A DNA stretch of 35,368 bases. Source: a virus. Below, piece by piece: positions 2,175-34,780 of this stretch. The stretch lies in the IMG/VR virus record IMGVR_UViG_3300009503_000062, positions 1 through 35,368 of that record, one strand, 5' to 3'. The first letter of the stretch is position 1. Each line of letters opens with the position of its first letter. The notes under the pieces are model-generated. The model was not told the origin of the DNA and searched no databases. It saw nothing but the letters and a program-made list of their open reading frames with translations. The position numbers were made by a program, and so were the translations under genes.

Positions 2175-5100
2175 TTACATAACTTTAATTAAACCTTCGT
2201 ACTTTTTAGTAATAGCGTTTCCAAAAATATCATATGATATGCACTCAACATCATATGTTCCGGGTGTATCAAATATGTAAGGAACACTATCATTATACAC
2301 TTTAAATAATATAGAGTCATTAAAGTGATCAGTTACAGTCCAGATATTTTTCTGATCTGTTAAGTATGTTGATGGGTCATAAATCGATCTTAGTATTACT
2401 AGTGTGCTTGCATCAACAACTATAGGTTTAGTATAATAATAAAATTCGCTATTTATTAAATTATCTGATACATCATACCACTGTGAATTCACTTTGTTAT
2501 GATCAAATAAAATGTTGATATAAGCAAATGTATTATCTAAATAATATTCCTGGCAATTTGAATCTTTTAGATAAATCTTGAAATTATTATTTTCTTCTTT
2601 AGCATCTTCAGTTAATAGAATTATATCTGAATAAGAAGAAAATGCATGTTTAACTTTAATGCTATATTTTAAAGGATTACTCAAAAAATAATTTGGAATG
2701 GGATAGTCAAATGTATGAGTACTTCCATTAACTTGAAGGACTCTATACGAAGATCCCCAAGAATATCCATTACTAAGGTCGGTTGCAATTACACCTACAA
2801 GTTGTCCAACTTCAAATTGATAACCACTAACATCTGCAACAAATTTATTATCTATGTTACTGTAATTAACTATTGAGCGATATGTATCATTTATAATATA
2901 AATATCAGAAGATGTATCAAAGTAAATAGAAGATGGAATGTTATCTAAAGTTAAATTATATCCAGAAACATTAACTATATGTGAACTGGCCTCTACTATT
3001 AAATCATAATTTCTTTTATCAAATTTCACTAATTTTATATCGTCATTTATATAAAATTTCTGATAATCTGGATCTATTGTAATTATGTTTCCGTTTATAT
3101 TTGTAACTCTTTCAGTTAAATTATAGAATTTATTTATAGAATTTTTCTCAGGAACATCTTGAAAATATGTTATAGATGGAATGGATACATAAGGTTTTCC
3201 TTGAGAATCTATATTAAAAGTTAGGCCTTGAAGTGAAATATACCTATCATATATAGGTTTATTATTATTTGATATAATTATACTAACATCATTTATATTA
3301 ATAAATGTACTTGAACATACTACATTACACTTATCGTCTATTAAAGTATAAATAGTTGGTGATTTAATCCACACTGAATACGGTTCATTAGCAATACCAT
3401 AGAACATTGTATTATAGTCATCCCAAGCAAAGACCTCTATATTATAATTTCCTATATGATTAACGCTCATTTTGTATATACTGTTGTCAATTAATATAAA
3501 GCTTGAATTATTATTTCCAGTTCTTCCAGATGGGTCTGACCAATAATATACACTTGGATCTATTTGATACAATCTCATTCTTGGTGATGTATAAACCGGA
3601 TTAACTGTTATCATTTGTTCATTTAAGCTTGTATCATAATCAAAATTTAAATAAATTGTTAAATTATCTGAAGAGTTTGTTGGATCTATTATTCCAGCAT
3701 TCATTTCTATTTTTCCATCTATAATATCTAAATAATATAATTTATCGAATAAATAGTTAACTCCGCTAGAGTCCATAGTTTTATAGTTCTTTACGCCAAA
3801 AAGTGGAACTTTATAGTTATCATCTATTGCATATTGAAGTAATGAATTTGTATTGGGATTAAGCGAAGGATAATCATAAAATTTATATATAACTCCAGAA
3901 GAAGCTTCCATTATATATCCATTTGAACATGGATCTGAATAAAATGAATAAGAAATAGATTTATCCCATTCATCTACACTTGCATCTCTTAAATATCCTT
4001 TCTCTATATAAATTGTTAAAGAGGTAGATGTATCAAAAAATATTGAAGATGTATCAAATGTATTATAAAATCTTATATCATTTTCCAAGACAAATAAAGG
4101 ATTTGAGACTAATGTTGAACCTATGACTCCGGCAAAATCTTTTTCTGTTGATAATCTATATAAAACATCGTTTACGTTAACAAGAGGATAAGAAAGTGGA
4201 GCTCCGACTATTAAATAATCACTTGAATTTTCTAAGAATGAGGGGTCATTCATAGAAAAATATCTACTTGGTTCTAATGGATTCCATGCATATTTGGCAA
4301 AATCTTCAAATTTATATGGTATATCAGATATTTTAAGTTTTGTCAATTCTAATAAAGACGCTTTTATATCTGCCTTTCCTTCTATTAATTCAGAAGATTT
4401 GTCTATTGCATAAGGAGTTAATTTTTGTTCTGCATTATAATTAAATCCAATTCCACTTATATTATAAGATAAATTTCTAAATCTTTCTATATATATGCCT
4501 TCTCCTGTTATATCAACTATTCTACAGTTTACACCTATTATATTTTTTTCTAACCAATTTTTTAACCCTAGTAATTTGACAAAAACTTCTTTAATATTAT
4601 ATGAGTAACAATTTTCAGTTATAGGAGTGCCCCAGATATCAGTTTCTTCAGTTTCTCTATTTATACAATAATTAAGAGATAATTGATTAAGCTTTTTAAG
4701 TGTTTTTCTTTGATTACTGTCAAACATTAAAATTGTCTGTAATCTGTCTTTTGCATCATATGGAACAACAAAAGATATTTTTTTATTTTCTTTAACATTT
4801 AAAAACCATTCTCTAATATAGACGTCATCATATCCAAGCCACTTAATTGCATTTATTAAACCCTTGTATGTGCCAACATACGGCATTATTTTATCGTGTT
4901 CAAGAATAATATGTTTTGATTTATAGTTTAATATTTTCCAATCTGGAAGATCTTCATTTATATCAGTTTCTTTTAAAACTTGTTTGATGTTAACTGGATC
5001 TGGCAAACCAAAATTTTCTATATGTGTTCTAAATCTTTCATCTTCTCCTATAGCTTCAGCATTTACAATTACTTCTCCGATAACATATGCAGTATCATTA

Positions 5101-13245: not shown

Positions 13246-15300
13246 ATGAGTAAATATATCTTATCTTTAAATGGCACGCCATTATCAATTAATAAAATTC
13301 CTATTTCTTATGATTACAATAATCAAATAGATGATTATATATTAAGTTTTTACACTGAAGCGAGTACAAATGCGTTTAGTCCTTCTTTTACAGTTACATC
13401 TGGAGTTTTACACTGGGATTTAGGAGATGGCAGTATTTTAGATGCAAATTTATTTAGTCATACATATAATTATGCGGGGCTTAAGCGCGTAAAAGTTTAT
13501 GCTGGAACTACAGGAGGAACGTCTAGTATCAATGGGATTAATATGCAAAGCAGTTATTTATATGGTACACTAGATATATCTAATATAACAGATATATCTT
13601 CACTTAGTGTAAATAATAATCTAAATCTTACACAAATACTTAATCCGGTTTCTTCGCGACAATTTACATATTATTCAGTATATAGTTGTAATTTAACTGG
13701 AACTTTAGATGTATCTGGCTTAACAAGATTAGGAGGATATTTTCATGTAAATAATAACCCAAATCTTACACAAATACTTAATCCAGTCTCCTCACAACAA
13801 TTTTCACAGTATAGGGCATATTATTGTAATTTAACTGGAACTTTAGATGTATCTGGTTTAACAGGATTGGGAGGACAATTTTATGTATATAATAATCGAA
13901 ATCTTACACAAATACTTAATCCGGTTTCTTCACAACAATTTACATATTATTCAGCATATAGTTGTAATTTAACAGGAACTTTAGATGTATCTGGTTTAAC
14001 AGGATTGGGTGGATATTTTTATGTAAATAATAACCTAAATCTTACACAAATACTTAATCCAGTTTCTTCAGAACAATTTTCATATTATTCAGCACATGAT
14101 TGTAATTTAACTGGAACATTAGATGTATCTGGTTTAACAAGATTAGGAGGAGGATTTAATGTATCTAATAATCCAAATCTTATACATATAATTAATCCAG
14201 TTTCTTCAGAACAATTTTCAGAGTATTCAGCATCTTTTTGTAATTTAACTGGAACTTTAGATATATCTGGTTTAACAAGATTAGGTGGAGTATTTAATAT
14301 ATATAATAATTCGAATCTTACACATATAATTAATCCAGTTTCTTCAGAATACTTTTCATCTTATTCAGCATCTTATTGTAATTTAACTGGAACTTTAGAT
14401 ATATCTGGTTTAACAAGATTGGGCGGAACATTTTATGCAAATAATAATCCAAATCTTACACAAATACTTAATCCAGTTTCTTCACAAAGATTTTCATATT
14501 ATAGCGCACATGATTGTAGTTTAACAGGAACTTTAGATGTATCTGGTTTAACAGGACTGGGCGGAGCATTTAATGTATATAATAATCCAAATCTTACACA
14601 AATACTTAACCCGGTTTCTTCACAACTATTTTCACAATATACGGCACATTATTGTAATTTAACTGGAACTTTAGATGTATCTGGCTTAACAAGATTGGGG
14701 GGATATTTTTATGTAAATAATAACCCAAATCTTACGCGAATAATTAATCCTGTTTCTTCGGAACAATTTTCAGCTTATTTAGCATATAATTGTAATTTAA
14801 CAGGAACTTTAGATGTATCTGGTTTAACAGGACTGGGCGGAACATTTTATGTATATAATAATCCGAATCTTACACAAATACTTAACCCGGTTTCTTCACA
14901 AGCATTTTCATATTATAGAGCACATGATTGTAGTTTAACAGGAACTTTAGATGTATCAGGGTTAACAGGTTTAGGAGCAGGAAGTAATATGCAATTTCAA
15001 GTTCAAAATAATACAAATCTTACTTCAATATTATTGCCTCCAGATTTTAGCACAACAGGATCATTTGCTTTATTTAATGCACATAATTGTTCATTAAATA
15101 CTACTACAGTAGATGATATTTTTTATAAACTTTATAAATTCTGGAATGTAAGGTTACCTAATCAAAATGCTATCATTGATTTAGCTGGAGGGAGAAATGC
15201 TTCTCCTACATCAGGATGGTCAAATACATATCTTGTAAAAATACAAAATATATTTGATGCATCTACTACATATGATGTTTCAATATACATTAATGCATAA
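13246..15300 (+). CDS. LRR-repeat tail adhesin with PKD-like domain
   Basis: This is a 684-aa protein. Residues about 45-85 form a PKD/Ig-like domain (LHWDLGDGS...FSHTYNYAGLKRVKVYAG). From about residue 107 to 600 it is an array of leucine-rich-type repeats of exactly 46 residues, each two LRR turns: GTLDVSGLTGLGGYFYVNN plus NPNLTQILNPVSSQQF...CNLT. Ten units keep perfect 138-bp spacing, with a diverged unit at each end. The backbone residues are almost invariant, while surface positions (YFHV/QFYV/GFNV; YSAYS/RAYY/SASF) vary. A C-terminal non-repeat cap covers about 615-684. Position in the fibre run and the repeat surface suggest receptor or glycan binding. The first start, at ATG 13246, is 21 nt after the previous stop. 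Confidence 0.7.
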   Translation: MSKYILSLNGTPLSINKIPISYDYNNQIDDYILSFYTEASTNAFSPSFTVTSGVLHWDLGDGSILDANLFSHTYNYAGLKRVKVYAGTTGGTSSINGINMQSSYLYGTLDISNITDISSLSVNNNLNLTQILNPVSSRQFTYYSVYSCNLTGTLDVSGLTRLGGYFHVNNNPNLTQILNPVSSQQFSQYRAYYCNLTGTLDVSGLTGLGGQFYVYNNRNLTQILNPVSSQQFTYYSAYSCNLTGTLDVSGLTGLGGYFYVNNNLNLTQILNPVSSEQFSYYSAHDCNLTGTLDVSGLTRLGGGFNVSNNPNLIHIINPVSSEQFSEYSASFCNLTGTLDISGLTRLGGVFNIYNNSNLTHIINPVSSEYFSSYSASYCNLTGTLDISGLTRLGGTFYANNNPNLTQILNPVSSQRFSYYSAHDCSLTGTLDVSGLTGLGGAFNVYNNPNLTQILNPVSSQLFSQYTAHYCNLTGTLDVSGLTRLGGYFYVNNNPNLTRIINPVSSEQFSAYLAYNCNLTGTLDVSGLTGLGGTFYVYNNPNLTQILNPVSSQAFSYYRAHDCSLTGTLDVSGLTGLGAGSNMQFQVQNNTNLTSILLPPDFSTTGSFALFNAHNCSLNTTTVDDIFYKLYKFWNVRLPNQNAIIDLAGGRNASPTSGWSNTYLVKIQNIFDASTTYDVSIYINA
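13564..15070 (+). repeat. tandem 138-bp repeats (LRR array)
   Basis: The conserved GGAACttTAGATGTATC core recurs at 13699, 13837, 13975, 14113, 14251, 14389, 14527, 14665, 14803 and 14941, each 138 bp after the last. A diverged copy 135 bp earlier starts at 13564, and a degenerate last unit follows to about 15070. High DNA identity between copies makes unequal recombination likely. Confidence 0.9.
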
Positions 15301-29040: not shown

Positions 29041-30822
29041 ATGGCAAATATAACTACAACAAATATTTCAAAATACGTTTTACTAAATGATTTTCTTCTT
29101 TTAGAATATGAATTCAATAGAGATGGCCAAGAAACTGTATTATCAGATGCATTTGTTGTTGATACATGTATAGGCTTAACAAAAGCATTTTATGAAAGTA
29201 ATAACGCAATAGGATTAACAAATAATGCGCTTAAATTAAATTCTATACCTACAAATACTCAAAGAACATCCTGGTTAATAGATACTGATACTCCAGAAAT
29301 AACATATCAATCATTTTGGTCAGATTCTTCCGTTCAAATATCACAACCATATAAATGTGATACTATCAAACTTCACGTGATAGCGGGTTATAACTTTGAA
29401 GATGTTGGAGGATTTCTTTTACAAGTTAGAGCAGATTCTGAAAATGGCTTAGTTGATTTGTCGAATTTTACATATATAAAACAATTATCAGGATCTGAGA
29501 TAGGAGATGTTATTAAATTTTCTCCAAATACATTATTTTTAGGAAATAGATTTTATGATAAATACATAGAATTTAAAGTTCCTTCTGTTCATGAACTTGG
29601 GTTAAATACACCTTCAACATTATTAGGAGATACATTAGGTGTAAAAAATTTATCAGATGTTTATATAACATATAGCACAATATTTGACGTAATAAAAGGA
29701 GAATTTGTACTAGATGAGATAATAAATGTACAACTTCCTGTTGAAAGTGTAGCTGATAAATTTAATTGTTTTATAGCTGAATCTACAGAAGGAGATTATA
29801 TAGAATATTATGCAACATGGGAAAATGATATAATAGGAGAGTATATGGGAGAAATTGAAAGTGGAAGGATAAGACTTTATACTTCTAATAACCCAAATGA
29901 TAATTATGAAAGTTTCGTAGATTCTTATGGCCCGAATGCTAGAAAATGGGTTATTATACATGAAATAGATGTACTAGAACAAATTCCTCCATCAACATCT
30001 TTATTAACTCAAAGATTTTCATTTACACAAGATAGTAATTTCTCTGAACCAAATTATTTTAGACCAATTTTAAAAAATTCTGATATAGATGCAACTTATA
30101 TGATACAATATACATGTAGATTAGTAAATAGAATGGATGGAACACAAATAATAAGAAAAGCTTCATTTTCTTCTAATAATCCTAAAAAATATGGATTAAG
30201 ATTTACAAGATTAAATGTAGATAATATAATTCCATATAAAATATTCAATAAAATAGAATCAGAAAAACCTAATATAAATATGGGAAGTTCTCCTGAAAAA
30301 GTAAAATATGTAAAAGTATTTTATGATACAGTGTCAGTTGTTATGAATGCATTTAATGAAGTTTTTCCACAAGGAACGGGACCCTTATTCTTAAAATCAT
30401 ATGACTCTGTGTATAAATTTAAATTTGAAAAAATAGACACAAATGGAAATAAAGTAAATGTTGATTTATCTGGAGCTTATAATTATGCGCTTTTATTTAA
30501 ATTAGATGATAATACTAAGATAGAAATATCTCCAACATATTCAACAAATATGAATACTACTATAGGAGAAATTGAGTTTAAGATTACAGAAGATCAATCA
30601 TCAATTCTTCAAAAGCAAAAGAAAAACACATATTCAATAATAATTAAAAATCCAAATGGAACATCATATACTTTTTATGAAGGTGTTTATTATCCATTAT
30701 CTAGACAAGATGAAGTGATTCAAAATTATAAGAGTATGTATACTGTAACAGATTTACAAAATAAAGTAACTGAATTGCAAACAGAGGTAGAAAGATTAAA
30801 AATTAACAATAATTTGATATAA
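29041..30822 (+). CDS. virion structural protein with C-terminal coiled coil
   Basis: This 593-aa protein lacks signal peptide and enzyme motifs. The N-terminal half is beta-rich (ISKYVLLNDFLLLEYEFNRDGQETV...). A jelly-roll or Ig-like layout continues to about 565, and the last 24 residues form a short coiled coil (VTDLQNKVTELQTEVERLKI) likely to trimerise or dimerise. It precedes the tail tube gene once the inserted TnpB-like module is disregarded, so a tail-tube-proximal or baseplate role is plausible. Family not recognised. The hairpin at 30833-30873 follows its stop. Confidence 0.5.
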   Translation: MANITTTNISKYVLLNDFLLLEYEFNRDGQETVLSDAFVVDTCIGLTKAFYESNNAIGLTNNALKLNSIPTNTQRTSWLIDTDTPEITYQSFWSDSSVQISQPYKCDTIKLHVIAGYNFEDVGGFLLQVRADSENGLVDLSNFTYIKQLSGSEIGDVIKFSPNTLFLGNRFYDKYIEFKVPSVHELGLNTPSTLLGDTLGVKNLSDVYITYSTIFDVIKGEFVLDEIINVQLPVESVADKFNCFIAESTEGDYIEYYATWENDIIGEYMGEIESGRIRLYTSNNPNDNYESFVDSYGPNARKWVIIHEIDVLEQIPPSTSLLTQRFSFTQDSNFSEPNYFRPILKNSDIDATYMIQYTCRLVNRMDGTQIIRKASFSSNNPKKYGLRFTRLNVDNIIPYKIFNKIESEKPNINMGSSPEKVKYVKVFYDTVSVVMNAFNEVFPQGTGPLFLKSYDSVYKFKFEKIDTNGNKVNVDLSGAYNYALLFKLDDNTKIEISPTYSTNMNTTIGEIEFKITEDQSSILQKQKKNTYSIIIKNPNGTSYTFYEGVYYPLSRQDEVIQNYKSMYTVTDLQNKVTELQTEVERLKINNNLI

Positions 30823-30832
30823 AAATCATAAA

Positions 30833-30873
30833 AAAATAATTTTCCTTAATATATATAATAAAAGGATTATTTT
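30833..30873. repeat. imperfect inverted repeat at the left edge of the TnpB-like module
   Basis: AAAATAAT (30833-30840) plus CCTT (30844-30847) pair with AAGG (30862-30865) plus ATTATTTT (30866-30873), with a 3-base bulge. It could be a terminator for the 593-aa gene or the subterminal hairpin of an IS605-like element end. Confidence 0.4.
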
Positions 30874-30995
30874 ATGTGGGTAAAATCTAAAGAATTTAAA
30901 AAAAATACTTGGTTTATCGAATCAAGCATTATATGAAAGACGTAAGAAAGGTTCATTAAAATATAAAATAGTTTGTTTATTTTTACTGGTTATAA
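30874..30995 (+). pseudogene. frameshifted small HTH protein relic
   Basis: From ATG 30874 the frame reads MWVKSKEFKKNT, then a one-base insertion near 30907-30910 shifts to GLSNQALYERRKKGSLKYKI. A second shift near 30970 gives FVYFYWL and TAA at 30993-30995. The restored reading has the same layout as the HTH at 353-535: W near the start, G-x-x-x-Q-x-L, R-K-x-G, Y-K, F-x-Y-x-L. It is therefore a broken copy of a HTH gene that once preceded the TnpB-like gene. Sequencing error is an alternative, but two errors would be needed. Confidence 0.6.
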
Positions 30996-31015
30996 AAAAA
31001 TGTTACAAGAGCAAA

Positions 31016-32314
31016 ATGAAAACGATTAAACTTCCATACAAATCATCTGAAGATTTAACACCTATACTTAAACAATATTCATCTGTTGTTAGGTATAGTT
31101 ATAATCGTTTTCTTGAAAATAAAACAGAAAAAGAAGTTAGATATTTAACTAAATCATTAAGTAACATTGATTTGTTAAACTCTTGGTTAATTCAATGCGC
31201 AATTAAAGACGCCAAAGCCATTCATATAAGATTTAAAGACGAAAAAGTTATATTTGGAGGAAAAAAGAATTTCATTGAAAGACTTAAGAACAAGATTTCT
31301 AATGAAGAATATCAACTTAAACGATTAAGTCCTATAAATATTCAAGGTGAAGAACTTAAACAAGGAAATCGTTCATTTAAGTTAGATATGATTGAAAACA
31401 ACCAAATCATCTTTAAATTAAGTAGGAATAAACATATTGAACTAAAATTGCCAAATTTAAGAAATAACATAGAGAATGAATTATTCAAGCTTCAACAACT
31501 TAATGAAGCTAAACATCAGAAAGGATGTACTTATTCAATTAGACTTGATTTAAAATATATCTATATAAGTTTTGAAGAATTTAAAAATGAAAAGGTCAGA
31601 AATTTAAATGAAAACAGATATTTAGGTATTGACTTAAATCCAGATACAATTGGAATTTCAATTTTAGATAATGGAAATGTTATCTATACTCAAGAATTTA
31701 GTTTGAAGCCTATTTTTAACAAAATTTTAAATGAAAAACTAAGTTCTAATTCAGATAGAATGAAATATTTTCAAAACAAATTAAAGTTTGAAACATTTGA
31801 GATAAGTAAATCTATTGCAAATCTAGCAAAATACTTTAATTGTAAATCAGTTTTTATTGAAGATTTACATTTTAAACGCTCATCAACAATAAAAATATCA
31901 AATAGAAAAAACAAAAATCTTTGGAAAAGAGAATTGTTTATCAATAACTTAAATAAGAGATTAAACATAGAAGGAATTAAACTTTATTCAGTTAATCCAG
32001 CTTACTCAAGTTTCATTGGAAATTTACAACATAACTATACAGATGCAGTAAATGCTTCAATAGAGATTGCAAGAAGGAGCTTTGAATATAAAGTAAAGAA
32101 AAACAAGAAAGCATTCTACCCAGATCTGTTGGTAAAACACCAATGGAAGGAAATGGCTGCTAAATATAAAGATTGGAAAGAATTCTTTCTTGAAATAAAA
32201 AACTTGAAATTGAAATATCGAGTTTCATTAAATGAATGCTTTCATAAATTTAATGTTTTTCAGCAAAATTCAAGTCATAAAAGTATGGTTTTAAATTATG
32301 TTTTTTATGACTAA
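31016..32314 (+). CDS. TnpB-like RuvC-domain nuclease lacking the zinc finger
   Basis: This is a 432-aa protein. The start MKTIKLPYKSSEDLTPILKQYSSVVRYSYNRF is typical of IS200/IS605 OrfB/TnpB relatives. RuvC catalytic positions are all present: D206 in YLGIDLNPDTIGISIL, E282 in FIEDLHF, and D343 in NYTDAVNASIEIARRS. The usual CxxC...CxxC zinc finger between RuvC-II and -III is absent; instead the region reads KNLWKRELFINNLNKRL...LYSVNPAYSSFIGN, the form seen in phage 'transposase' proteins of this type. TnpB enzymes are RNA-guided DNA nucleases that help elements persist. Whether this branch is guided is not known. The ORF is intact although its HTH neighbour is broken. It sits between structural genes, on the same strand. 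Confidence 0.8.
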   Translation: MKTIKLPYKSSEDLTPILKQYSSVVRYSYNRFLENKTEKEVRYLTKSLSNIDLLNSWLIQCAIKDAKAIHIRFKDEKVIFGGKKNFIERLKNKISNEEYQLKRLSPINIQGEELKQGNRSFKLDMIENNQIIFKLSRNKHIELKLPNLRNNIENELFKLQQLNEAKHQKGCTYSIRLDLKYIYISFEEFKNEKVRNLNENRYLGIDLNPDTIGISILDNGNVIYTQEFSLKPIFNKILNEKLSSNSDRMKYFQNKLKFETFEISKSIANLAKYFNCKSVFIEDLHFKRSSTIKISNRKNKNLWKRELFINNLNKRLNIEGIKLYSVNPAYSSFIGNLQHNYTDAVNASIEIARRSFEYKVKKNKKAFYPDLLVKHQWKEMAAKYKDWKEFFLEIKNLKLKYRVSLNECFHKFNVFQQNSSHKSMVLNYVFYD

Positions 32315-32320
32315 TTATTT

Positions 32321-32363
32321 AATTTATTGAATTTTGTATTTTAACAGAAGAAAACAATAAATT
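32321..32363. repeat. 9-bp inverted repeat downstream of the TnpB-like gene
   Basis: AATTTATTG (32321-32329) and CAATAAATT (32355-32363) form a perfect stem with a 25-base loop, in the 73-nt gap between the TnpB-like gene and the tail tube gene. It could be the element's right end or guide-RNA 3' structure, or a 5' leader structure of the tube mRNA. Confidence 0.4.
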
Positions 32364-32387
32364 GAAGATAAAATAGAGATTTAAAAT

Positions 32388-32987
32388 ATGAGTATTCTCA
32401 ATAGTAAAGCTAACATGTATGTCATCTGGTTTCCCAGAGACTTTTTTTATCCTGAAGTTAGAGAAAGATGGACTCCAGTTGTAAAAAGATTAAAACTTCC
32501 GTATGATTCTCTAGAAGATTTTATAAATGCAACTGTTCAAAGTGTAACATTTCCAGAATTTTCTTTCTCAAATGTTTCTCAACCACAAACAATGTTTAAT
32601 ATAACATATAGAGGAGGAAAAGAGCTTGAGCCATCTGTAGAAAAAACTATTTCAGTTTCATTTAAACTAACTGAAGGTTTTATCTCATATTGGATGTTTT
32701 TTGATCAAATAGAGTTATATCGAAAGTATTCAGCAACAGTTCCATTTTGGCCTTCGATGTATATTAGTTTTCTTGATCATCATGGATTTGAGTTAATGGC
32801 GTTTGAATTCAAACAAATTGTTCCTACATCATTATCACAATTAACTGTTGGATATTCTACAGTAGTTTCAGATTTTTCAACATTTTCTTTAGGCTTAAAA
32901 TACAATAGATATAAAATAATAAGAAGACTAGATAAAAATAATTATACAGTCGGAATTTCAAATTTAACCGGAGGTATTTTTGAGTAA
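32388..32987 (+). CDS. tail tube protein, gp19-like
   Basis: This 199-aa protein is slightly longer than T4 gp19 (163 aa). It has the tail-tube outline: an N-terminal helix-strand region, then VQSVTFPEFSFSNVSQPQTMFNITYRGGKELEPSVEKTISVSFKL (about 49-94), FISYWMFFDQIELY (about 98-111) and a C-terminal strand pair (LTVGYSTVVSDFSTFSLGLKYNRYKI). The central 'V...P.....' strand followed by a long basic/acidic loop and a W-containing helix is how distant gp19 homologues look. It polymerises into the inner tube through which DNA passes. It is the last plus-strand gene and its stop is 4 nt from the stop of the convergent resolvase gene. Confidence 0.75.
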   Translation: MSILNSKANMYVIWFPRDFFYPEVRERWTPVVKRLKLPYDSLEDFINATVQSVTFPEFSFSNVSQPQTMFNITYRGGKELEPSVEKTISVSFKLTEGFISYWMFFDQIELYRKYSATVPFWPSMYISFLDHHGFELMAFEFKQIVPTSLSQLTVGYSTVVSDFSTFSLGLKYNRYKIIRRLDKNNYTVGISNLTGGIFE

Positions 32988-32991
32988 AAAT

Positions 32992-33621
32992 TTATTTAAA
33001 AAGCTCTTTTTTTCTAAGTGTTTCTAGTGTCCAGAATGAATCTACTAAATCATCAATATGTATTATCCATTTTTTTGATCTAATAGTTTGAAATTTTTCT
33101 CTATAATTTTTTAGATTATTTTTAAATTCATTATCTATATCACTATTTATAAATTTTTCTATCATATCAAATTTTGTCATTCCTCTTTTTGAGCATTCAG
33201 CTACACTTTTTATTGTGATAGGAGAATAAGTGAACATATGATTTAGAGGAATGTATTCTTTTAACTTTAGCATAAGAATATATTTATAACCACTTAATTG
33301 TAGTACCACGTCACCTGACGATGCATAAGATAAACCTTCGAATGCGAGATAAGTATTATTATTAATAAAATTTTTAAGTGACGAGATGATTAAATTTGAG
33401 AGATACTCAGCATTTTCTATTTCATATCTCATTTTTTCAGATATATTCTTATGTTCAACTTTTACATCTGTTCTATCCACAATTTTAACACCAGAATTTT
33501 TAAAAGTTTCTACTATTTCTGGGTTTAAACCATAAGGCCAACTTATAAAATGATAAGTATTATTCGAAAAAATGCAAGCTGCAGGTTTATTTATTGAAAA
33601 ATCAATTCCTATAAGATTCAT
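32992..33621 (-). CDS. RuvC-like Holliday junction resolvase
   Basis: This 209-aa protein has an RNase H/RuvC fold: D7 in LIGIDFSINKPA, E95 in YLAFEGLSYASSG, and D190/D191 and D194 in IIHIDDLVDSFW near the C-terminus, giving the DED(D) set of phage resolvases. Size and the 'FEGLSYxSxG...' motif match the RuvC-like resolvases of large phages. It would cut branched DNA before packaging, like T4 gp49, although that enzyme is of a different fold. It is the last gene of a minus-strand run (helical unknown, SET, cupin, resolvase), 8 nt after the cupin gene, and converges with the tail tube gene. Confidence 0.8.
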   Translation of the reverse strand: MNLIGIDFSINKPAACIFSNNTYHFISWPYGLNPEIVETFKNSGVKIVDRTDVKVEHKNISEKMRYEIENAEYLSNLIISSLKNFINNNTYLAFEGLSYASSGDVVLQLSGYKYILMLKLKEYIPLNHMFTYSPITIKSVAECSKRGMTKFDMIEKFINSDIDNEFKNNLKNYREKFQTIRSKKWIIHIDDLVDSFWTLETLRKKELFK

Positions 33622-34084: not shown

Positions 34085-34780
34085 TTAATAATTTGCTCCT
34101 TTTATTGCTACACCAGACACAGCTGGATTTGCATTACTATTAGGTTCACCAAATTCATTTTTAGTTTGTTTATTTGAAATATCCTCTGCATTTGGTTGAA
34201 TTAAACTTTCATTTTCTACTTTTTTTGTAACAACTCCTGCTGATTTAACATTTGTTGCATTTTGCATAGGAGCCATAGCAGAAAATCCTGTTCTTTCAGC
34301 CCAATAATCTTTTCCATAATTTATTGTAAGTTCTTCACCGATATTAATAATTCTTGAAGCTATAAAATACATTTGTTTATTTTTAGGATTATAGGCGAAT
34401 GTTATATTTGGATTATAACTATGAGAATATAAAGATCCATATCCTAAAACAACGCCATAAATGCCCTTTTCTTTGTCTATTTCAAATATTATATCATTTA
34501 ATTTTGAAATAGTTTTCGCTTCTTCTCCAACAAAAATAATGGGGCATATTTCTACAATTTCTCCTTTTGCAAATTGAGTTTTAGCTAAAACTGTATATGC
34601 GCCATTAGCTTTCTTAGAGTATTCAACTCTATTAATATTAAATATTTCTTTTCTTAATTTTAAAATTCCCCCTTTATCTGCTATATGTGAAGGCTTTTTT
34701 TCAATTGGATTATTTTCCTCAAATGGATTATAAAAGTCTTCATTTAAATATTCATCTAAAGATTTAATTCTGTGTTTCAT
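34085..34780 (-). CDS. SET-domain protein (putative lysine methyltransferase)
   Basis: This is a 231-aa protein. Residues about 50-160 form a SET domain: RVEYSKKANGAYTVLAKTQFAKGEIVEICP at the start, then YGSLYSHSYNPNITFAYN (114-131, in place of the usual N-H-S) and IINIGEELTINYGKDYW (144-160, the GEEL...YG signature). SET enzymes methylate protein lysines using SAM. The N-H of the NHS motif is S-H here, so activity is uncertain. The N-terminus SLDEYLNE ends in an L-x-E resembling T4 capsid-targeting sequences, and residues 170-231 are a low-complexity Asn/Ala-rich tail. It overlaps the upstream gene by 17 nt. Confidence 0.75.
   Translation of the reverse strand: MKHRIKSLDEYLNEDFYNPFEENNPIEKKPSHIADKGGILKLRKEIFNINRVEYSKKANGAYTVLAKTQFAKGEIVEICPIIFVGEEAKTISKLNDIIFEIDKEKGIYGVVLGYGSLYSHSYNPNITFAYNPKNKQMYFIASRIINIGEELTINYGKDYWAERTGFSAMAPMQNATNVKSAGVVTKKVENESLIQPNAEDISNKQTKNEFGEPNSNANPAVSGVAIKGANY

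What the first reader, a model, noticed from the sequence alone, without database searches (positions are those of the whole stretch)
30874..32363. TnpB-like, zinc-finger-less RuvC nuclease inserted in the tail operon
An intact 432-codon gene with all three RuvC acidic residues (D206, E282, D343) but no CxxC zinc finger lies between two structural genes, directly before the tail tube gene. There is no transposase gene. TnpB relatives are RNA-guided nucleases (established for IS200/IS605 TnpB); this phage branch is little described and may act as a guided homing enzyme or as competition against related phages. The 3' end of the gene and the 73 nt after it are where a guide RNA would be expected.
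Basis: partly seen in the sequence, partly recalled or inferred. Interest (0 to 1): 0.75.

Follow-up and report, generated by a model that had tools for sequence, protein, structure and literature searches.

The report
Zinc-finger-less TnpB homing element in phage
A phage from an environmental DNA sample carries a small mobile element that has lost its own transposase but kept a Cas12-like, apparently RNA-guided DNA cutter and its guide RNA, which probably cuts rival phage DNA lacking the element so that the element is copied in.

Summary
Window 31016-32314 encodes a 432-aa TnpB with an intact RuvC D206/E282/D343 triad and no CxxC. The real unit is larger: a 1,548-bp element (30796-32343) derived from an IS607-family insertion sequence, with a left end, a broken relic of the serine-recombinase gene tnpA (30874-31029), tnpB, and a right end. 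A relative (L009) keeps intact tnpA (NCBIfam IS607 transposase, 173 bits against a cut-off of 110). Copies at 80-91% identity lie at other sites; three copies share one phage contig. tnpA-defective lineages occupy several sites, while TnpB stays under purifying selection (dN/dS 0.11-0.23). A sister phage shows the uninterrupted site; the insertion replaced the last ten codons of the upstream tail gene. The 3' end carries a guide-RNA scaffold supported by covariation, from the tnpB tail to the right end; hairpin 1 persists, with residue changes that follow pairing, down to Campylobacter and Lak phages. Target sites suggest a TAM of about 5'-TRTTA, which the element's own right end (TTTTA) lacks. 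Cleavage and homing are inferred, not shown. This is a new variant of a known kind: phage-borne, zinc-finger-less IS607 TnpB.

The parts
30796..30873 (+). Left end (LE) of the element, starting TTAAAAATTAACAATAATTT; homology to other copies begins here and the flanks differ
   Evidence: Conserved in L003, L004, L005, L006, L007, L009, L011
30874..31029 (+). Relic of IS607 tnpA (N-terminal helix-turn-helix part, frameshift, large internal deletion, 3' remnant overlapping the tnpB start)
   Evidence: tblastn to the intact 198-aa TnpA of L009 and alignment of the deletion; TnpA of L009 is NF033518 transpos_IS607, 173 bits, cut-off 110
31016..32314 (+). tnpB: 432 aa, RuvC D206/E282/D343, no zinc finger
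   Evidence: dN/dS 0.11-0.23
32200..32343 (+). Predicted reRNA scaffold: hairpin 1 (32200-32225), hairpin 2 (32226-32255), long-range stem 32263-32273 with 32327-32337; overlaps the tnpB 3' end. The true 5' end of the RNA is unknown
   Evidence: Covariation, reduced synonymous change in the last ~40 codons, hairpin 1 across distant relatives
32315..32343 (+). Right end (RE), finishing ...TTGAATTTTGTATTTTA; last conserved base 32343
   Evidence: Identical or nearly so in 10 loci with unrelated flanks
32344..32363 (+). Predicted guide (first ~16-20 nt of phage DNA after the right end)
   Evidence: Inference from TnpB/IS607 biology (PMC8612924, PMC10711439); the flank differs at each insertion site
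29041..30822 (+). Interrupted tail-operon gene; the element replaces its last ten codons (TEENNKLKIK) by KINNNLI
   Evidence: Joined-flank reading frame and uninterrupted relative L058, 67% identical
32388..32987 (+). Tail tube gene downstream of the element
   Evidence: PHROG 45, E 2.2e-8

Best explanation
A phage-adapted element derived from an IS607-family insertion sequence. It has lost its serine transposase in cis but keeps both ends, a catalytically intact zinc-finger-less TnpB, and an overlapping reRNA. SHOWN: element boundaries, the uninterrupted site in a sister phage, the tnpA relic, purifying selection on TnpB, and covariation in the 3' RNA. INFERRED: TnpB binds the reRNA made from the 3' part of its own transcript plus about 16-20 nt of downstream phage DNA as guide. 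The complex cleaves the matching element-free site in co-infecting or sister genomes next to a TAM of about 5'-TRTTA. It spares the occupied site because the right end supplies TTTTA instead. Phage recombination repairs the break from the element-bearing copy, so the element is retained and homes. Movement to new sites probably uses an IS607 TnpA supplied in trans.
For: IS607 origin: intact relatives of tnpA in L009, L042, L041 and Lak-A1. Nuclease: invariant D/E/D, Cas12f/TnpB fold, dN/dS 0.11-0.23 in tnpA-less copies too. RNA: 98.1% of cells paired, 12 double-change cells against 4.5 in shuffles, 0/500; synonymous dip at the 3' end, p 0.0004; hairpin 1 kept across CP220 and Lak phages, 0 of 5,000 synonymous recodings reach it. 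Site: empty allele in L058; motif TR before TTA in 7 of 8 sites, R in 8 of 8, against TTTTA at the right end. Homing precedent: reinstatement model for ISDra2 (PMC8612924) and gene drive of IS200/605 in plasmids (PMC11870625).
Against: No transcript, cleavage or homing data. The TAM rests on eight sites and was chosen after looking; the window's own site is GATTA, the one exception at the T. TIGR matches are below cut-off. Copies come from metagenome assemblies, where repeats can be joined wrongly. Homing copies an element to the same site, so the several different sites need a separate transposition step. No strictly allelic element-free copy of the same phage was found.
Confidence: 0.68

Rival explanations
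1. An ordinary non-autonomous IS607 copy. TnpB only restores the element after excision, and spread is entirely by TnpA in trans from co-infecting phages; there is no inter-phage homing.
For: Ends are kept and tnpA-less lineages sit at several sites, as expected for trans mobilisation; intact IS607 tnpA exists in related phage elements.
Against: No intact tnpA in the 129.7-kb contig, though it may be incomplete; TnpB is conserved while tnpA decays repeatedly, which suggests selection on TnpB itself.
Confidence: 0.2
2. A domesticated TnpB that works as a regulator or as a weapon against competing phages rather than for its own spread (TldR-like, or superinfection exclusion).
For: Position in the structural operon; TnpB-derived repressors (TldR) are encoded by phages (PMC13418256).
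Against: The RuvC triad is intact, unlike nuclease-dead TldR; multiple copies at unrelated sites with intact ends look mobile, not domesticated.
Confidence: 0.08
3. A decaying, functionless insertion.
For: The tnpA gene is broken.
Against: Open frames in all full-length close copies, dN/dS 0.11-0.23, conserved covarying RNA.
Confidence: 0.04

Closest known systems
IS607-family insertion sequences with TnpB (ISXfa1, ISFba1; PMC10711439, PMC11061315)
   Same: Serine-recombinase tnpA overlapping tnpB, fixed bases shared by both ends, reRNA overlapping the 3' end of tnpB and the right end
   Different: tnpA is a relic here; no zinc finger; reRNA matches no Rfam family at E up to 1; AT-rich predicted TAM (TRTTA) instead of AGGAG/GAGGG reported for the RAGATH-18 group
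ISDra2 TnpB (IS200/IS605; PMC8612924)
   Same: RuvC D/E/D nuclease, fold (Z 12.9), reRNA from the right end, AT-rich TAM next to the left end
   Different: IS607-type transposase relic instead of Y1; zinc finger absent; about 11% identity over the aligned structure
ISCaje4 of Campylobacter phage CP220 and the TnpB elements of Prevotella Lak phages
   Same: Closest isolate or complete-genome relatives (37-39% identity): zinc-finger-less TnpB, same hairpins, IS607-type tnpA either intact (Lak-A1) or reduced to 80 aa (CP220)
   Different: Different insertion sites; Lak phages read TAG as Gln; CP220's element is annotated as IS200/IS605
Phage homing endonucleases (free-standing)
   Same: Insertion at a gene end in the structural cluster; the sister phage carries a homing-endonuclease-like gene in the same gap
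   Different: Target specified by a guide RNA (inferred), not by the protein
Cas12f
   Same: Best fold match over residues 1-372 (Z 17.6)
   Different: No CRISPR array; right-end RNA instead of crRNA/tracrRNA; carried on a mobile element

Membership tests
TnpB (RNA-guided nuclease) | RuvC D/E/D catalytic triad | tested here: met
   D206, E282, D343 invariant in 19 aligned relatives
TnpB (RNA-guided nuclease) | TnpB/Cas12 fold and sequence-profile match | tested here: met
   Cas12f Z 17.6, ISDra2 TnpB Z 12.9, ISFba1 TnpB Z 11.9; TIGR01766 and TIGR01765 E about 1e-6 but below cut-off
TnpB (RNA-guided nuclease) | CxxC zinc finger between RuvC-II and RuvC-III, present in canonical TnpB | tested here: not met
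   No CxxC; also absent in the aligned CP220, Lak, Thermus and Acetobacter relatives, so a variant trait rather than an exclusion from the superfamily
TnpB (RNA-guided nuclease) | Structured reRNA overlapping the 3' end of the gene and ending at the right end | tested here: met
   Conserved covarying structure; transcription itself not tested
TnpB (RNA-guided nuclease) | Guide- and TAM-dependent DNA cleavage | not testable with these tools
   Needs biochemistry; a TAM is only predicted
IS607 family | Serine-recombinase TnpA with N-terminal DNA-binding domain, overlapping tnpB | tested here: met
   Met in relatives L009 and L042 (NF033518 173 and 163 bits, cut-off 110); in the window only a broken relic
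IS607 family | No long terminal inverted repeats; short identical core at both ends and at the target | tested here: met
   TTA at the left end, at the right end and at the uninterrupted site of L058; a 3-bp duplication cannot be told apart from a core, but TTA is the same at every site
IS607 family | Short subterminal direct repeats bound by TnpA | tested here: inconclusive
   LE has a few repeated 7-mers, RE none, in very AT-rich DNA
TldR (nuclease-dead TnpB repressor) | Loss of RuvC catalytic residues | tested here: not met
   Triad intact
Homing endonuclease (functional class) | Present or absent at an otherwise conserved site | tested here: met
   Uninterrupted homologous site in L057/L058
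Homing endonuclease (functional class) | Cleaves the element-free allele and is copied into it | not testable with these tools
   Consistent anatomy only; empty site seen in L058

The most novel reading that the evidence does not exclude
A lineage of phage elements in which an IS607 transposon has turned into a transposase-free, RNA-programmed homing element. Each insertion re-programs itself from the flank, and the right-end sequence (TTTTA against a TAM of TRTTA) gives self/non-self discrimination. It uses a zinc-finger-less TnpB whose C-terminal amino acids evolve to keep the guide-RNA hairpin paired.
Probability: 0.45. Interest if true: 0.75.

Novelty: new variant of a known kind. Interest (0 to 1): 0.55.

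Why it matters
It gives a compact, testable RNA-guided nuclease system without the zinc finger of canonical TnpBs, with a predicted scaffold, guide start and TAM. It also suggests how a transposon can become a programmable homing element in phages, where co-infection supplies both targets and recombination. The question of why phages keep TnpB after losing TnpA becomes directly testable, because the occupied and empty sites, the putative TAM and the guide are all specified.

Tried and rejected
Exact-pattern search for the joined (empty) site hit only L079, an unrelated gene whose coiled-coil end happens to match 26 nt; it is not an allele. Rfam scan of 30700-32700 at E up to 1: nothing. PDB sequence searches with the protein and its profile: nothing, so a structure prediction was needed. 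Pfam gave only noise for TnpB. A scan of bacterial genome contigs found only one 26% fragment; its peptide patterns are strict, so absence from bacteria is NOT claimed, and plasmid relatives exist. L005 may be a recombinant or an assembly chimera, because its first half matches L011 and its second half L003; its left flank was still counted among the eight because it is distinct. For L040 the hairpin-1 pattern took the wrong register (2 of 8 pairs); it was left in, so the score is conservative. Open-access literature searches turned up no description of a zinc-finger-less phage TnpB branch, but I read only parts of a few papers and the library lacks many subscription papers.

Full report
What is there. 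The window is an IMG/VR record 99.97% identical over 9.35 kb to part of a 129.7-kb viral contig, IMGVR_UViG_3300005573_000060. ORF 31016-32314 encodes 432 aa. Its only informative family matches are the TnpB models TIGR01766 (2e-6) and TIGR01765 (3.5e-6), both under their curated cut-offs. Among 19 aligned relatives D206, E282 and D343 are invariant. There is no CxxC; the stretch that carries the zinc finger in canonical TnpB is replaced by VNPAYSSFIGN...D. An AlphaFold2 model (mean pLDDT 75) matches Cas12f over residues 1-372 (Z 17.6) and ISDra2 TnpB (Z 12.9); residues 199-364 match RuvC (rmsd 2.7-2.8 A).

Boundaries. Nine other loci at 80-91% identity, and several more distant ones, lie in other contexts. 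Three copies, counting this one, are in the 129.7-kb contig. Comparing them fixes the left end at 30796 (TTAAAAATTAACAATAATTT) and the right end at 32343 (...TTGAATTTTGTATTTTA); flanks diverge at once on both sides. Joining the two flanks restores a reading frame in the upstream tail gene...TELQTEVERLTEENNKLKIK*. Sister phages L057/L058 (67% identical in this protein) have an uninterrupted end...AELQAEVQKLTDELATLKAT*, and their similarity to the window protein stops exactly at the insertion point. The insertion therefore replaced the last ten codons of a tail-operon gene by seven read from the left end (KINNNLI). In L058 the same gap holds an unrelated endonuclease gene of homing type (PHROGs 15137 and 3339, E 1.8e-18 and 1.5e-15).

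Origin. Upstream of tnpB the window has a frameshifted and internally deleted gene that matches the 198-aa protein intact in L009. That protein is an IS607-family transposase (NF033518, 173 bits, cut-off 110) with Pfam Resolvase at 8e-22. L042, L041 (TAG read as Gln) and Prevotella phage Lak-A1 (TAG read as Gln) also keep it. Campylobacter phage CP220 keeps only an 80-aa fragment. So the element is IS607-derived. One tnpA deletion is shared by the window, L003, L005 and L011, and another by L004 and L006. These copies have different left flanks, so tnpA-less versions have changed place after losing tnpA, by mobilisation in trans or another route. No intact tnpA was found in the 129.7-kb contig, which may be incomplete.

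Selection and RNA. tnpB copies show dN/dS 0.11-0.23 in the comparisons printed, including between tnpA-less copies. Synonymous change drops in the last ~40 codons (permutation p 0.0004 for the end, 0.021 for any window). Ten sequences share a fold from 32200 to the right end: two adjacent hairpins and a long-range stem that pairs GCAAAATTCAA with TTGAATTTTGT at the terminus. 98.1% of cells pair, with 12 double-change cells against 4.5 +/- 1.5 in shuffles (0/500), and sliding the partners destroys it. The long-range stem itself hardly varies, so it is supported by conservation rather than covariation. Across distant relatives hairpin 1 stays paired while its letters change: window AAACUUGA/UCGAGUUU, CP220 AAACUCUA/UAGAGUUU, Lak AAAGUCGA/UCGACUUU. 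The encoded residues change with it (Leu to Ser, Val to Leu). None of 5,000 synonymous recodings and none of 5,000 swaps of right arms reach the observed pairing. This is what an overlapping reRNA predicts (established for ISDra2, PMC8612924, and for IS607 TnpB, PMC10711439 and PMC11061315).

Target motif. All eight left flanks have a purine before TTA and seven have TR (the window itself has GA). Background rates in the contig are 0.44 and 0.16, giving P 0.0015 and 2e-5; the motif was chosen after seeing the data. Every right end has TTTTA at the same place. If the TAM is about TRTTA, the occupied site is protected from its own guide. No guide finds another close target in the contigs scanned, apart from two 3-mismatch hits for the window guide.

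Mechanism. Best supported: TnpB with the reRNA cuts element-free alleles beside the TAM, and recombination copies the element in. This is analogous to the reinstatement proposed for ISDra2 (PMC8612924) and the gene drive reported for IS200/605 elements in plasmids (PMC11870625, a preprint). For this phage element cleavage and homing are inference. The main rival is a plain non-autonomous IS607 copy moved by TnpA in trans.

Novelty. TnpB, IS607 and TnpB-only elements are known. Zinc-finger-less TnpB-related proteins also occur on Thermus and Acetobacter plasmids, the Thermus ones annotated as TnpB-related. I found no open-access paper that characterises this branch or its RNA. I class it as a new variant of a known kind.

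Noticed in passing
window 34085-34780 (-): SET-domain protein (Pfam PF00856, E 7.7e-12) encoded by the phage; SET methyltransferase-like genes are unusual in phages.
   Followed up: no
window 32992-33621 (-): A second RuvC-like protein (PHROG 159 Holliday junction resolvase, E 1.4e-4) lies just beyond the tail tube gene; unrelated to the TnpB element.
   Followed up: no
window 13553-14990: Tandem array of about 138-bp repeats, 82-86% identical, inside ORF 13246-15300.
   Followed up: no
L041 4001-5254 and L042 4001-5281: Related IS607/TnpB elements sit in phages that appear to read TAG as Gln (L041) or TGA as Trp (L042); element genes use the same recoded codons. In L041 the right end abuts what reads like a tRNA gene.
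   Followed up: partly
L010 about 4720-5000: The 5' part of this copy is replaced by the start of a different TnpB-like ORF (MLRAVKIKIYLDNNQIDYVNNLLGTCRFVYNN...), which reads into the tnpA remnant: one element inserted into or recombined with another.
   Followed up: no
L006 6725-7606: Downstream of a copy lies a 293-aa protein weakly similar to REase_MTES_1575 (Pfam, E 2.6e-4, below cut-off), perhaps a further homing-type endonuclease in the same phage.
   Followed up: partly
L003, L005, L011 tnpB: Trees from the two halves of tnpB disagree: copies are mosaics, through recombination between copies or metagenome assembly chimeras.
   Followed up: partly
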